A stretch of 64,000 bases of DNA, taken from positions 248,001 to 312,000 of the forward strand of contig JAIQGK010000001.1 of NCBI GenBank assembly GCA_020072645.1. The letters are read 5' to 3'. A program made the position numbers and the translations under genes. This document shows positions 58,901 through 63,176 of the stretch, in pieces. The stretch comes from Terriglobia bacterium. Its GTDB lineage: Bacteria; Acidobacteriota; Terriglobia; Terriglobales; Acidobacteriaceae. Below the pieces are notes generated by a model. It ran no database searches, was not told where the DNA came from, and saw only the letters and a list, made by a program, of their open reading frames with translations. Every line of letters starts with the position of its first letter. The stretch's first letter is position 1.

Positions 58901-59293
58901 GTGAATCGTGAGCTGCCAAAACCTCTCCGTTGGGTCGGGTCGTCTCTAAGCGATTTAAGGTCCTTTCCATCTGAGGTCCGTTCCGCAGTAGGCTATGCGC
59001 TCTATGCTGCGCAAAACGGCCATGTTGACCCGGCAGCAAAACCCATGAAAGGCTTTGGCGGCGCAAGTGTCATGGAAATTATTGCTCCCTTTGCTGGAAA
59101 CACGTGGCGTGCCGTCTATACCATCCGCTTTCAAGAAGTTGTTTATGTCCTCCACGCTTTCCAGAAGAAATCCAAATCAGGGATTTCTACTCCAAAGAAA
59201 GAGATAGACCTGATTTATCAGCGGCTGGCGGCTGCTCAGCGAGACTACGAAACGAGGCAGAAATTTTATGCAGACCAAAAGAAAAACCGCTAA
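58901..59293 (+). CDS. RelE/HigB-type toxin (phage Gp49-like)
   Basis: A 130-residue protein of the HigB/Gp49-like RelE fold: LRSFPSEVRSAVGYALYAAQ, KPMKGFGGASVMEIIAPFAG, TWRAVYTIRFQEVVYVLHAFQKKS and STPKKEIDLIYQRL are the conserved pieces. It should act as a ribosome-dependent mRNA interferase. It starts at a GTG with no ribosome site and overlaps the antitoxin gene by 26 bases, the toxin-first order typical of HigBA. Confidence 0.9.
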   Translation: MNRELPKPLRWVGSSLSDLRSFPSEVRSAVGYALYAAQNGHVDPAAKPMKGFGGASVMEIIAPFAGNTWRAVYTIRFQEVVYVLHAFQKKSKSGISTPKKEIDLIYQRLAAAQRDYETRQKFYADQKKNR

Positions 59294-59609
59294 AAAAACT
59301 ATTGTTGCGGAGAGTAGCGGCAATGTTTTTGCCGATCTTGGCCTTCCCAACGCGGACCAGGAGCTCATGAAAGCGCGCCTGACTCTGCAAATCCACCGTA
59401 TCATCCAGGAACGCGGTCTTACCCAGACGGAGGCCGGAAGAATTCTCGGAATCCCGCAACCTCAAGTTTCAGCGTTGGCGCGCAATCGCTCCGGCAATTT
59501 CTCCATCGGTCGCCTGATTGAGTTTCTAACCGCACTTGGTCAGGACGTTAAGATAACCGTTACTCCGGCACGTAAACCGCACGGTCAAATGTCTGTTGTG
59601 GTGGCTTGA
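59268..59609 (+). CDS. XRE-family antitoxin (HigA-like)
   Basis: A 113-residue antitoxin with a Cro/C1 helix-turn-helix in its middle: LTLQIHRIIQERGLTQTEAGRILGIPQPQVSALAR...IGRLIEFLTALGQDVKI. It binds the promoter region and neutralises the toxin. The N-terminal 30 residues are basic and probably flexible. It overlaps the toxin gene, so the two are translationally coupled. Confidence 0.9.
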   Translation: MQTKRKTAKKTIVAESSGNVFADLGLPNADQELMKARLTLQIHRIIQERGLTQTEAGRILGIPQPQVSALARNRSGNFSIGRLIEFLTALGQDVKITVTPARKPHGQMSVVVA

Positions 59610-59651: not shown

Positions 59652-60866
59652 ATGAAAGCCAATGTTTGCTCCGGTCTGTTGTTTCTTCTACTCGCCGTTA
59701 TTCCTTCCGCGGCCAACGAGCTTCGCACCACCATTGTTTATGACGATGCGCCAACCGATCTGGCCGCGGTACGTGAAGACGGCGGCCAGCTCTGGATCAC
59801 CACTGCCGACCTGAAGCGCGCAACGCGTTTTGAAGTAAAGCCGCAAGGAGTCTGTCGCGATGAGCTCTGCTTTCCGCTGCCCAAGGCGCGGCAGCAGGAA
59901 TTTATTCGCAAGACTCCACCAGTGACGTGGTTTAACATGACGGCGTTTGCTGCTCTGGTCCACCAGCCGGTGGCGCATGATGCCGCAATGTCCACTTGGT
60001 ATTTTGGGCTGCGCTCTGACCAGCGCCAGCAGCTCAGTTCACTGCAAGCGCCGGACTTTACGCTGCCTGATCTGAATGGCAAGCCGCACCGGCTCTCGGA
60101 TTTCCGCGGAAAGAAAATTTTGCTGGTTACATGGGCAAGCTGGTGAGGGTGCCGCTTTGACCTGCCAGGCTGGCAGGCAATCTACCAGCAATTGAAAGAT
60201 AGGAATTTTGAAATCATCTCCGTAGCGCAGGATACTGGCGGCGCAAAAGATGCCGGGCCTTGGATCGATCCATTGAAATATGTTTCGGCCAAGCCTGATC
60301 TGCCGCCAGCGACGATTGAGACGGCGAAGAAAATCGGCCCGCTGAGCTATACCGTGCTGATAGACGAGAAGCACCTCGTCTCCAAGTTGTACAACATGGT
60401 CAACGTGCCCACCGGCGTCTGGATCAACGAGCAAGGCCGCATTGTGCGTCCGAATGAAGTTGCATTCGTGGACGACCGCTTCAAGAACTTCACCGGCATG
60501 GACTCTGAACCGTATCTCAATGCACTGAAGGACTGGGTGGAAAAAGGCGACAAGAGCGCCTACGTGATGAGTGAAGATCATCTACGTGAAAAACTAACGG
60601 TTCAAGATCCGAACATCGCGCAAGCCGCGGCTGAGTTTGGCCTGGGCGAGCAACTCTACAAGTCCGGCCACCAACCGGAAGCCGTCGCGCACTTCAAGGA
60701 GGCGCAGCGTTTGAATCCGAAGAGCTGGAATTACAAGCGCCAGGCCTATGCTCTCTCAAGCGAAAAGGATTATGGAACCACGTTCCGCGATGAGGTGCAG
60801 AAGATTGGCGGGAGCAAGGTTTACTATCCGCCACCGGAGTTGCCGGGAGAGAAGAAGCCGAATTAA
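59652..60866 (+). CDS. thioredoxin-fold selenoprotein (WASW-U-GC), exported, with C-terminal helical repeat
   Basis: 404 residues if the in-frame UGA at 60,144-60,146 is read as selenocysteine. I use the ATG at 59,652 (GGAG six bases upstream). A signal peptide (MKANVCSGLLFLLLAVIPSAA) and an extra domain (about 25-130) precede a redoxin domain starting DFTLPDLNGKPHRLSDFRGK. The active site is WASW-U165-G-C167-RFDLPGWQ. The frame continues intact through the thioredoxin fold (FEIISVAQDTGG, VPTGVWINEQGRIVRPNE) and ends with a TPR-like helical pair (AAAEFGLGEQLYKSGHQPEAVAHFKEAQRLN). The hairpin 14 bases after UGA fits a bacterial SECIS. Alternatives are a nonsense mutation in a Cys version or a sequencing error. 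Confidence 0.85.
60161..60177 (+). promoter_or_regulatory. bacterial SECIS-like hairpin
   Basis: CCTGCCAGGCTGGCAGG folds as a perfect 7-bp stem with loop GGC (or 6 bp with loop AGGCT). The loop starts 21 bases after the UGA at 60,144. Bacterial SECIS elements are small stem-loops within the coding sequence just downstream of UGA, with a G-rich apical loop; this one meets the geometry. Folding was done by eye. Confidence 0.7.
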
Positions 60867-61121
60867 CCACTAGATCAACCGCAAAGAACGCGAACAAACG
60901 CAAAGGAATTGATCGAGCAAGAAATGGATTAGAGGAAAATTGGAGCGGCGACACAGGCCCAGAATGATCGATTTACTGAATGATTAGCGTGTTGTTGCGT
61001 ACTCTCTGGATTGACTTCGTGTTCCTTTGTGTCCTGATGGTTCGCCAGCGCAAGCACTATATATAATTTGGCCGAGATTCATTTTCTGCAAGCTTGGGTG
61101 TGTGGTGGAAGGAGAATCTAT

Positions 61122-63176
61122 ATGAGCACCTTTTCGCCCAAAGAGAGCCGGCAACGGACACCCTCGAGCACTCCCAGCCTTATCGCGCCGACCCGTTCGA
61201 TCAACCATCAGCAGCATCCAATTCTGAATTTGCAGCGCACAATTGGCAATCAGGCGGCGCTGCGGCTCATGCAGGCGCCGGTGCGGAGCATCCAGCGGAA
61301 ACTCGCCATTAACGAGCCCGGCGATGCATACGAGCAAGAAGCCGACCGCGTGTCCGAGCAGGTGATGCGCATGCCCGAGACCCGCACGGCTGCGGCCGCG
61401 GCATCAAGCGCGGCCCCAAGAGTCCAGCGCGCCTGCGCCTGCGGTGGAACATGCGACGACTGCAAGAAGCATTCAGAAGACGAACATGCCCGCGTGCAGA
61501 TGAAAGCCGCCGGGCCGCGCAGCAGCGGCGGGATGGAAGCGCCGCCGATTGTCCATGAAGCTCTGCGCTCGCCCGGTAAACCGCTGGACAGGGCGACACG
61601 CGACTTTATGGAGCCTCGGTTCGGGCACGACTTCAGCGGTGTGCGGGTGCATACGGGTACGAAGGCGATGGAGTCGGCGAAGGCGGTGAATGCAAGAGCG
61701 TATACGGCGGGGAATAACGTGGTATTCGGCGCGGGAGAATTTACGCCAGGAACGCATGAAGGCCAGCGATTGCTGGGGCATGAGCTGACGCATGTGGTCC
61801 AGCAGGACGGCCTATCAACAGCGCCGCAGGTGCAGCGCAAACCCTCAACCGACGATGAAAGAGCACATAACCAAGCGGTCCAGCAGCACAAGGAGCAGCA
61901 ACTGAATGTTGCTCAGATACTGGAGCGGGGACGTAAGATCAAGCGCGATCCTTCGAAAGGCCCCCTGGATCCGGACAATCTTTATGTGAATACAATAGAT
62001 CTGCTGGACAAGAGGAGAATGGTTTTGACTATTCTCACTCCTACACATTATTCAGATCCGAACAACCCGACTTATTTTGATCCCAAAGTCCACTACCCGG
62101 ATACCGGCGGGGATTACTTGGCGGATCCGAGAGCCAAAGGCGTTGGAACAGTTTCTCCTCCCACTCCCGGCACGGCAGGTCTAACAGACGTGCTGAAGAC
62201 GCAAAGCACTTCAATCTCGACGGTGCAAAAAGGAGATGAAAAGGTTCAGCCACGCGTAACCTTGACACCGCAGCCAGAGCAATCACCCGAAGTAGAACCC
62301 CAGCGAAAGGCACCACAGGCCACACCACCGGTCCTTCCGGCATTGACGTGGACCGCTGCCGAAGTCCAATTATTCACCAGCTCTACTCCCATTTCAGAAT
62401 CAGATTTTAGAAATACATTTGTGCACGAAGGGCAACATGTTGCGGACTTGGACTATCTTCAGACATTGGATTTTTCCGATTGGCATACGGTGTTTGCGCG
62501 ATACGCCAGCGAGTTCAGGGCTTTCTGGCTACAGCCAAAAAACCAAGGTTCATGCCCCATCCCCGGCGTTTGTGTCGGAGCCGGAGGGAATTTTCCTGAT
62601 CCCATTCCTATCGATCCCGCCGACAAGCAGCCCCCCATAACTTTGGGAAAGGATCAAAACTGTAAGCCATGTCCTACGCCTGCTCAAGGGAGCACGCCGC
62701 CTGCCAGAAGCAGAGTCCCCCAAATGAAGAATTCCAGGCAGGATGCCATCTTTCGGACCCTGATGAGTAATTATTCCTACCAGCAGTTCGACTGCTTTTA
62801 TGTATGTAACAAGAGTTTTTCTGATGCAGTAGATGCCTTCACGCTTCCCGCCGGTGAGAATGTCGCAAACTCTGTGCGCCTGATGGACCTACGCCTTGAG
62901 TTGCAAAAGCTGGCGCCGACAATGAGCCTGGCCGAACTCAAACAAACTAAATTCGAGGCAGCAATCAGCGCTCTCGATGACATTGACTGGGCATTTTTGA
63001 AGGAGAGGCAGACGAAGTCCGCAAAAGGGCTCCACCTTTCCGATCCACTCTGGGACCTGCTTCGCAGCGCTGCGCCCGCACCCATCGTGGATATGATGGC
63101 AGCGGTGGTCGATAAGAAGAGTCCAAGGGATGCGGCGGTGAAAGCCCTGGAAAGCGCCTTGAAGAAAATTAAGTAA
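61122..63176 (+). CDS. DUF4157 protein with a second HExxH-like motif
   Basis: 684 residues from the ATG at 61,122, which has GGAAGGAG just upstream. The N-terminus carries the repeat-like LQRTIGNQAALRLM and a Cys cluster (CACGGTCDDCKK). The DUF4157 core (about 155-230) reads FGHDFSGVRVHTG...ARAYTAGNNVVFG and ends with the metalloprotease-type H220-ELTH-VVQQ. A second HEGQH at 435-439 (FVHEGQHVADLDYLQ) lies in the C-terminal half. DUF4157 proteins are frequently linked to extracellular contractile injection systems as processing proteases or cargo; no injection-system gene is in the window. A TATAAT box is at 61,062-61,067. Confidence 0.85.
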   Translation: MSTFSPKESRQRTPSSTPSLIAPTRSINHQQHPILNLQRTIGNQAALRLMQAPVRSIQRKLAINEPGDAYEQEADRVSEQVMRMPETRTAAAAASSAAPRVQRACACGGTCDDCKKHSEDEHARVQMKAAGPRSSGGMEAPPIVHEALRSPGKPLDRATRDFMEPRFGHDFSGVRVHTGTKAMESAKAVNARAYTAGNNVVFGAGEFTPGTHEGQRLLGHELTHVVQQDGLSTAPQVQRKPSTDDERAHNQAVQQHKEQQLNVAQILERGRKIKRDPSKGPLDPDNLYVNTIDLLDKRRMVLTILTPTHYSDPNNPTYFDPKVHYPDTGGDYLADPRAKGVGTVSPPTPGTAGLTDVLKTQSTSISTVQKGDEKVQPRVTLTPQPEQSPEVEPQRKAPQATPPVLPALTWTAAEVQLFTSSTPISESDFRNTFVHEGQHVADLDYLQTLDFSDWHTVFARYASEFRAFWLQPKNQGSCPIPGVCVGAGGNFPDPIPIDPADKQPPITLGKDQNCKPCPTPAQGSTPPARSRVPQMKNSRQDAIFRTLMSNYSYQQFDCFYVCNKSFSDAVDAFTLPAGENVANSVRLMDLRLELQKLAPTMSLAELKQTKFEAAISALDDIDWAFLKERQTKSAKGLHLSDPLWDLLRSAAPAPIVDMMAAVVDKKSPRDAAVKALESALKKIK

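What the first reader, a model, noticed from the sequence alone, without database searches (positions are those of the whole stretch)
59652..60866. Undetected selenoprotein: thioredoxin-like gene read through an in-frame UGA
Seen: the frame runs from 59,652 to 60,866 with a single TGA at 60,144 flanked by WASW and GCR, exactly where a redox Cys belongs. Both halves show thioredoxin-fold sequence, the downstream 240 codons have no other stop, and a perfect 7-bp hairpin with loop GGC begins 14 bases after the UGA. Known: bacterial selenocysteine insertion needs a UGA plus an immediately downstream SECIS hairpin, and Trx-like U-x-C proteins exist. Inference: this is a genuine selenoprotein. Standard gene calling would report two unrelated fragments.
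Basis: partly seen in the sequence, partly recalled or inferred. Interest (0 to 1): 0.85.

Follow-up and report, generated by a model that had tools for sequence, protein, structure and literature searches.

The report
Selenocysteine thioredoxin-like protein of known family

Summary
TGA 60144-60146 is the only in-frame stop in 59652-60866; a perfect 7-bp hairpin, loop GGC, follows, its loop 21 nt after the UGA. The same genome (99.14% complete) has SelA, SelB, tRNA-Sec, and SelD and formate dehydrogenase genes with in-frame TGA and similar hairpins. Of 80 named relatives (the best 80 of 309), 68 have TGA and 12 a Cys codon here, with at least six switches on a tree of 76 rows. The hairpin is intact in 61 of 66 UGA rows and 2 of 11 Cys rows, and is kept in part by paired silent changes (CTG..CAG to TTG..CAA). 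It is very probably a genuine selenoprotein, not shown by experiment. It is not a new kind: NCBIfam holds the family (NF041054, 'WAxxUGC_long'; 295.1 bits here against a cut-off of 300), and papers of 2008, 2022 and 2026 list 'UGC-containing' Prx-like/TlpA-like selenoproteins. I infer a periplasmic thiol-disulfide or peroxide reductase; substrate unknown.

The parts
59652..60866 (+). selenoprotein gene, 404 residues with Sec at 165; hydrophobic N terminus, beta domain, ResA/TlpA-like domain, TPR-like tail
   Evidence: open frame but for one TGA; NF041054 295.1 bits; AhpC-TSA 60.1 bits; model mean pLDDT 84.5
60144..60146 (+). UGA codon read as selenocysteine (residue 165), in the motif W-A-S-W-U-G-C
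   Evidence: 68 of 80 named relatives TGA, 12 of 80 Cys codons here
60161..60177 (+). SECIS-like hairpin, 7 bp, loop GGC, 21 nt between UGA and loop
   Evidence: paired changes in alignment A3
59709..60026 (+). N-terminal beta domain with Cys68-x4-Cys73; no Pfam match to the window protein, no PDB match at E 0.001
   Evidence: a Cys-x4-Cys upstream of the site in 80 of 80 named relatives by pattern
60030..60551 (+). thioredoxin-fold domain, ResA/TlpA-like, with Sec165-Gly-Cys167 and invariant Pro253 (its reading as the cis-Pro is recalled)
   Evidence: 3gl3 Z 18.2, 139 residues, 2.2 A; 1st9 Z 17.4, 136 residues, 2.5 A
60624..60722 (+). TPR-like stretch in the C-terminal tail
   Evidence: PF07719 21.4 bits, below its cut-off of 27, in this protein; TPR_2 in 17 of 18 members of A1 at E up to 1

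Best explanation
This is a functional selenoprotein gene. At UGA 60144, SelB carrying Sec-tRNA(Sec) binds the hairpin 60161-60177 and Sec is inserted at residue 165 (inferred from sequence and comparison; not shown by experiment). The product is probably exported by its hydrophobic N terminus (inferred) and acts as a thiol-disulfide oxidoreductase or peroxide reductase on a ResA/TlpA-like fold: the selenolate of Sec165 attacks the substrate and Cys167 resolves it (inferred from fold and motif). The Cys68/Cys73 pair of the N-terminal domain may pass electrons to or from the Sec site (speculative). Read-through as Sec: about 0.97. ResA/TlpA-like redox chemistry: about 0.75. Substrate: unknown.
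For: Machinery in the same genome: SelA E 4e-131; SelB 387.9 bits, cut-off 242.25; tRNA-Sec 73.9 bits, gathering score 47, with TCA at the anticodon place by eye; SelD with an in-frame TGA near its N terminus (that this is SelD's usual Sec site is recalled). SelD and three FdhA-like genes of the genome have hairpins of 7-8 pairs (G-U allowed) whose loops start 18-20 nt after the UGA; here it is 21. Relatives: phylum sample, 26 copies in 24 of 396 genomes, 25 with one TGA and 1 with TGC; SelB in 24 of those 24 and in 256 of all 396. Named genomes: 68 of 80 TGA, 12 of 80 Cys codon, at least 6 switches on a 76-row tree. Hairpin on 67 UGA rows: 94.5% of cells paired against 90.1 in shuffles, 30 cells with both sides changed against 9.3 (0 of 500 shuffles as high for either). 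Columns 19-33 go together in 4 of 4 independent pairs, columns 18-34 in 3 of 4, none opposite. Six-pair stem (G-U allowed) in 61 of 66 UGA rows and 2 of 11 Cys rows. Coding constraint after the UGA: against the same-genus L051, dN 0.13 and dS 2.2 in 238 codons after it, 0.25 and 1.6 in 164 before (dS near saturation).
Against: The hairpin by itself is weak evidence (22 of 2154 TGAs; 779 of 20000 recodings), and a 56-nt fold prefers another structure and is no better than shuffles. Two covariation measures are not above shuffles: pairs with a change on both sides (273 of 500 as high) and further pair types (500 of 500); and sliding the 3' partner by -1 gives nearly as many both-side changes (29 against 30) and a covariation score of 0.192 against 0.224, though only 39.0% of cells pair. 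Shuffles ignore kinship. Independent-pair sign tests do not reach 0.05 (18-34 p 0.25; 19-33 p 0.125; UGA against intact stem, same way in 3.9 of 6 on average, median p 0.125). One Cys-form genome (G183) also has SelB. The 24 phylum genomes are clustered (12 genera of 210), so SelB in 24 of 24 is weaker than it looks. No protein or selenium was measured.
Confidence: 0.95

Rival explanations
1. The TGA is a sequencing error or a recent nonsense mutation in a Cys gene (pseudogene).
For: Cys homologues exist (12 of 80); one base separates the two forms.
Against: TGA is shared by 68 of 80 named relatives and 25 of 26 phylum copies (the sets overlap); low dN against dS on both sides of the UGA; stem intact in 61 of 66 UGA rows and 2 of 11 Cys rows.
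Confidence: 0.01
2. The UGA is a real stop: a short 164-residue protein and a separate downstream protein from an internal start (for example TTG 60192).
For: A plain ORF listing gives exactly these two ORFs.
Against: The cut falls inside one thioredoxin fold, between strand 155-161 and helix 166-181 of the model; Cys forms run through the site; the machinery is present.
Confidence: 0.02
3. The protein is a peroxiredoxin-type enzyme that reduces peroxides (Prx-like, as older papers name it) rather than a ResA/TlpA-type disulfide reductase.
For: Best Pfam family is AhpC-TSA, 60.1 bits; the literature name is 'Prx-like (UGC-containing)'; peroxiredoxin and Bcp structures reach Z 14-15.
Against: The top rows of solved structures are DsbE-like and ResA (Z 16-18), a small gap; NCBIfam calls the family ResA-like. 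The Prx T-x-x-C motif (recalled) is not seen: the sequence is WASWU.
Confidence: 0.25

Closest known systems
NCBIfam NF041054 WAxxUGC_long, 'ResA-like WAxxUGC motif-containing protein'
   Same: motif WAxxUGC and matches over model positions 8-205 and 234-353 of 354, E 8e-88; all 18 members of A1 match the model at E 0.001
   Different: this protein scores 295.1, 4.9 bits under the cut-off of 300; its same-genus relative L051 reaches 302.4 in the genome scan
'Prx-like (UGC-containing)' / 'UGC-containing TlpA disulfide reductase family' selenoproteins (PMC2398784, PMC9312934, PMC13188914; passages seen)
   Same: AhpC-TSA or TlpA-type domain with U-G-C at the active site
   Different: the passages seen give domain and motif only and do not mention an N-terminal Cys-x4-Cys domain or TPR tail; their member sequences were not compared with this one
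ResA / TlpA / DsbE (CcmG) thiol-disulfide oxidoreductases
   Same: thioredoxin fold, Z 17.4 to ResA 1st9; a conserved Pro in the place of the cis-Pro (role recalled)
   Different: active site is Sec-Gly-Cys, one residue shorter than the Cys-x-x-Cys of the genome's own paralogues; extra N-terminal domain and tail

Membership tests
bacterial selenoprotein | in-frame UGA at a redox Cys position, with Cys homologues | tested here: met
   68 TGA and 12 Cys codons of 80
bacterial selenoprotein | SelA, SelB, SelD and tRNA-Sec in the genome | tested here: met
   each over its cut-off
bacterial selenoprotein | SECIS model: loop 3-9 nt with G in its first two positions, stem 4-16 bp, 16-37 nt from UGA to loop, MFE at most -7.5 (PMC13188914, section 5) | tested here: met
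   loop GGC, 7 bp, 21 nt; 21-nt hairpin fragment -11.7 kcal/mol; but a 56-nt fold prefers another structure
bacterial selenoprotein | Sec found in the protein | not testable with these tools
   needs 75Se labelling or mass spectrometry
NCBIfam NF041054 | score at or above 300 bits | tested here: not met
   295.1 bits, read with Cys for Sec
NCBIfam NF041054 | WAxxUGC motif | tested here: met
   WASWUGC at 161-167
ResA/TlpA oxidoreductase | thioredoxin fold | tested here: met
   predicted model, Z 17.4 to 1st9, 136 residues, 2.5 A
ResA/TlpA oxidoreductase | Cys-x-x-Cys active site | tested here: not met
   Sec-Gly-Cys instead
ResA/TlpA oxidoreductase | disulfide reductase activity | not testable with these tools
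   no assay
peroxiredoxin | peroxidatic T-x-x-C motif (recalled) | tested here: not met
   the sequence before Sec is W-A-S-W

The most novel reading that the evidence does not exclude
A three-part selenoenzyme in which the conserved Cys-x4-Cys of an uncharacterised N-terminal beta domain is a second redox centre that shuttles electrons to or from the Sec-Gly-Cys site: a self-contained periplasmic relay, found under the labels of eleven phyla (record labels of mostly MAGs, at least one of them doubtful).
Probability: 0.3. Interest if true: 0.5.

Novelty: new member of a known kind. Interest (0 to 1): 0.3.

Why it matters
It shows that reading raw sequence can find a true selenoprotein. A plain ORF listing splits the gene in two, and this member scores just under NCBI's own cut-off for the family. 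The UGA rows give a clean SECIS alignment with silent paired changes, and the conserved Cys-x4-Cys domain is a testable lead on a family whose function is not given in the passages I saw.

Tried and rejected
Rfam scan of the window at gathering scores: 0 matches. A 56-nt fold of the UGA region was not significant. Conserved gene neighbours: clustering 647 ORFs of at least 100 aa from the flanks (up to 6 kb, often cut by contig ends) of the 80 named relatives and the window found no neighbour family in more than 4 loci, apart from pieces of the gene itself in the loci that the exclusion missed; I found no operon partner at that sensitivity. N-terminal domain: no Pfam match to the window's domain, only weak single-member hits (best E 0.24) among 17 members; Foldseek best E 1.0; a second look gave best Z 7.4 to 5h3k and 6.0 to an usher N-domain, within the range of common arrangements, so its fold is undecided. 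The viral structure library gave mainly glutathione peroxidase and thioredoxin-type matches, 5 at E 0.001. Promoter-like sites 2 (shuffles 1.2), terminator-like sites 2 (shuffles 2.1): nothing to use. Papers: 'WAxxUGC' with 'selenoprotein' 0; 'UGC-containing' with 'selenoprotein' 3; further searches. Passages only were seen of PMC12013277, PMC5029168 and PMC1794560; they added nothing on this family. Of PMC13188914 I saw abstract, outline, passages and section 5.

Mended on the way: a first translation script read the minus-strand loci on the wrong strand and was replaced. A first regex for the formate dehydrogenase UGA sites gave no true site and was replaced. The first classification missed 4 of 80 loci by its regex (3 TGA, 1 TGC); they were added but are not in the tree (77 rows given, L075 left out as too short), in A3 or A4, or. 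The score cut of E 1e-40 leaves out more distant copies.

Full report
What is there. The frame 59652-60866 is open but for TGA 60144-60146 at codon 165, in the context LLVTWASW-U-GCRFDLPGWQ. A perfect 7-bp hairpin, loop GGC, starts after 14 nt; its loop lies 21 nt after the UGA. Against chance the hairpin alone is modest: 22 of 2154 TGAs of the window have a Watson-Crick stem as long in the SECIS position range, and 779 of 20000 synonymous recodings of the same peptide do. A 56-nt fold prefers another structure and is no better than shuffles; the 21-nt hairpin fragment folds at -11.7 kcal/mol. It meets each constraint of the published bacterial SECIS model (PMC13188914, section 5).

The genome can do it. 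The window's assembly (42 contigs, 99.14% complete) has SelA, SelB over its cut-off, a tRNA-Sec at 73.9 bits with TCA at the anticodon place by eye, and SelD with an in-frame TGA near its N terminus. Two formate dehydrogenase genes over the model's cut-off (925.2 bits, and 1295.4 with its pieces joined by the tool, cut-off 814.2) and a third, weak FdhA-like match (86.3 bits) have one in-frame TGA each. After these four UGAs the longest hairpin (G-U allowed, G in the first two loop positions, distances 10-39 searched) has 7 or 8 pairs and a loop that starts 18-20 nt away. So the genome's surer selenoprotein genes show nearly the geometry of the gene under study. The rate of such hairpins with G-U allowed was not measured at random sites.

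Relatives. In 396 genomes of the phylum, 24 (own included) have the family at E 1e-40, with 26 copies; 25 have one TGA, and one (L043, genome G183) has TGC at the same place and no hairpin. All 24 have SelB, against 256 of all 396; the 24 fall in 12 genera of 210, so this is weaker than it looks. A scan of named genomes kept the best 80 of 309 relatives: 68 TGA, 11 TGC, 1 TGT. Its two search patterns were made with Cys for Sec, so one of them favours Cys forms. The two sets overlap: L044, L045, L046, L050, L053, L054 and L043 lie on contigs of the same length as those of L081, L106, L057, L061, L118, L095 and L113, so their counts must not be added. A tree of 76 rows needs at least six switches between UGA and Cys. 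The nearest named relative is Candidatus Angelobacter sp. Gp1-AA117 (L055, 70% identity), so the window is probably from that neighbourhood of the Acidobacteriota. The rows carry labels of eleven phyla, but they are mostly MAG record names, and L113, labelled Acidimicrobiia, seems to be the contig that the genome search places in the window's phylum.

The hairpin as RNA. In 67 UGA rows (window, L051 and 65 of the 68 named UGA loci) the stem is paired in 94.5% of cells; the bottom pair is C-G 38, U-A 23, U-G 1, unpaired 5, the next C-G 57, U-A 7, unpaired 3. The second pair joins the first base of a Leu codon (CTG or TTG) to the third base of a Gln codon (CAG or CAA): both changes are silent, so protein constraint does not explain why they go together. 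On the tree they go together in 4 of 4 independent pairs, the bottom pair in 3 of 4, none opposite, too few for significance. Sliding the partner by one to three columns drops pairing to 26-59%; but the slide by -1 keeps nearly as many both-side changes (29 against 30) and a covariation score of 0.192 against 0.224, and two measures (pairs with both-side change, further pair types) are not above shuffles. Six-pair stems are intact in 61 of 66 UGA rows and 2 of 11 Cys rows; across independent UGA/Cys pairs the stem goes the same way in 3.9 of 6 on average. The Cys set pairs at 66.2%, not clearly above its shuffles (119 of 500). I take the hairpin as good support, not proof; the UGA/Cys exchange and the machinery carry more weight, so my odds do not change with these weaknesses.

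What the protein is. Pfam gives AhpC-TSA at 60.1 bits and TPR below cut-off. NCBIfam gives NF041054, 'ResA-like WAxxUGC motif-containing protein', at 295.1 bits against a cut-off of 300. The AlphaFold2 model (18-row alignment, mean pLDDT 84.5) has an N-terminal hydrophobic helix of low confidence, a beta domain, a thioredoxin fold and a helical tail. The Trx part is nearest to DsbE-like 3gl3 (Z 18.2) and ResA 1st9 (Z 17.4); peroxiredoxins reach 14-15. Invariant in 18 rows are, among others, Cys68, Cys73, Sec/Cys165, Cys167 and Pro253. A Cys-x4-Cys upstream of the site is found by pattern in 80 of 80 named relatives, Cys forms included. The N-terminal domain has no Pfam match in the window and no convincing PDB match. 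Some relatives (L030, L036, L038 and L042 in A1) start at the beta domain without a signal-like stretch, so export is not certain for the whole family.

Known or new. The 2008 ocean survey lists 'Prx-like (UGC-containing)', pfam00578, with 46 selenoproteins and 855 Cys homologues (PMC2398784, passages). Reviews of 2022 and 2026 list a UGC-containing Prx-like protein and a UGC-containing TlpA disulfide reductase family protein (PMC9312934, passages; PMC13188914, passages). So the finding is a new member of a known kind. Formal membership in NF041054 misses the cut-off by 4.9 bits, though the same-genus relative L051 at 75% identity reaches 302.4. Whether the deposited record already has this gene as a selenoprotein could not be seen.

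Verdict. The claim that it is new is not supported.

Noticed in passing
window 58901-59609 (+): A Gp49-like (PF05973) gene overlapping an HTH_37 gene directly upstream of the selenoprotein: looks like a HigB/HigA-type toxin-antitoxin pair (type name recalled).
   Followed up: partly
window 61068-63176 (+): Large protein with an eCIS_core domain, 111.4 bits, downstream on the same strand; such domains go with extracellular contractile injection systems (recalled).
   Followed up: no
L018/L021 (G000:C12:254514-255335): SelD of the same genome is itself a UGA gene with a 7-pair hairpin, loop 20 nt after the UGA.
   Followed up: yes
L135, L137, L139 (G000:C7, C9, C1): Three FdhA-like genes with one in-frame TGA each; L139 is only a weak partial match to the formate dehydrogenase model (86.3 bits) but has U-H-A-P-S-V and an 8-pair hairpin.
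   Followed up: partly
L074, L098, L111: Relatives from Chloroflexi or Dehalococcoidia records with U-S-C or C-S-C in place of U-G-C at the active site.
   Followed up: no
L045 and L054 (genome G077); L042 and L053 (genome G152): Two UGA copies of the family in one genome.
   Followed up: no
L043 (G183): A Cys-form gene without hairpin in a genome that still has SelB: Sec and Cys can exchange without loss of the machinery. Its contig seems to be L113, whose record is labelled Acidimicrobiia.
   Followed up: partly
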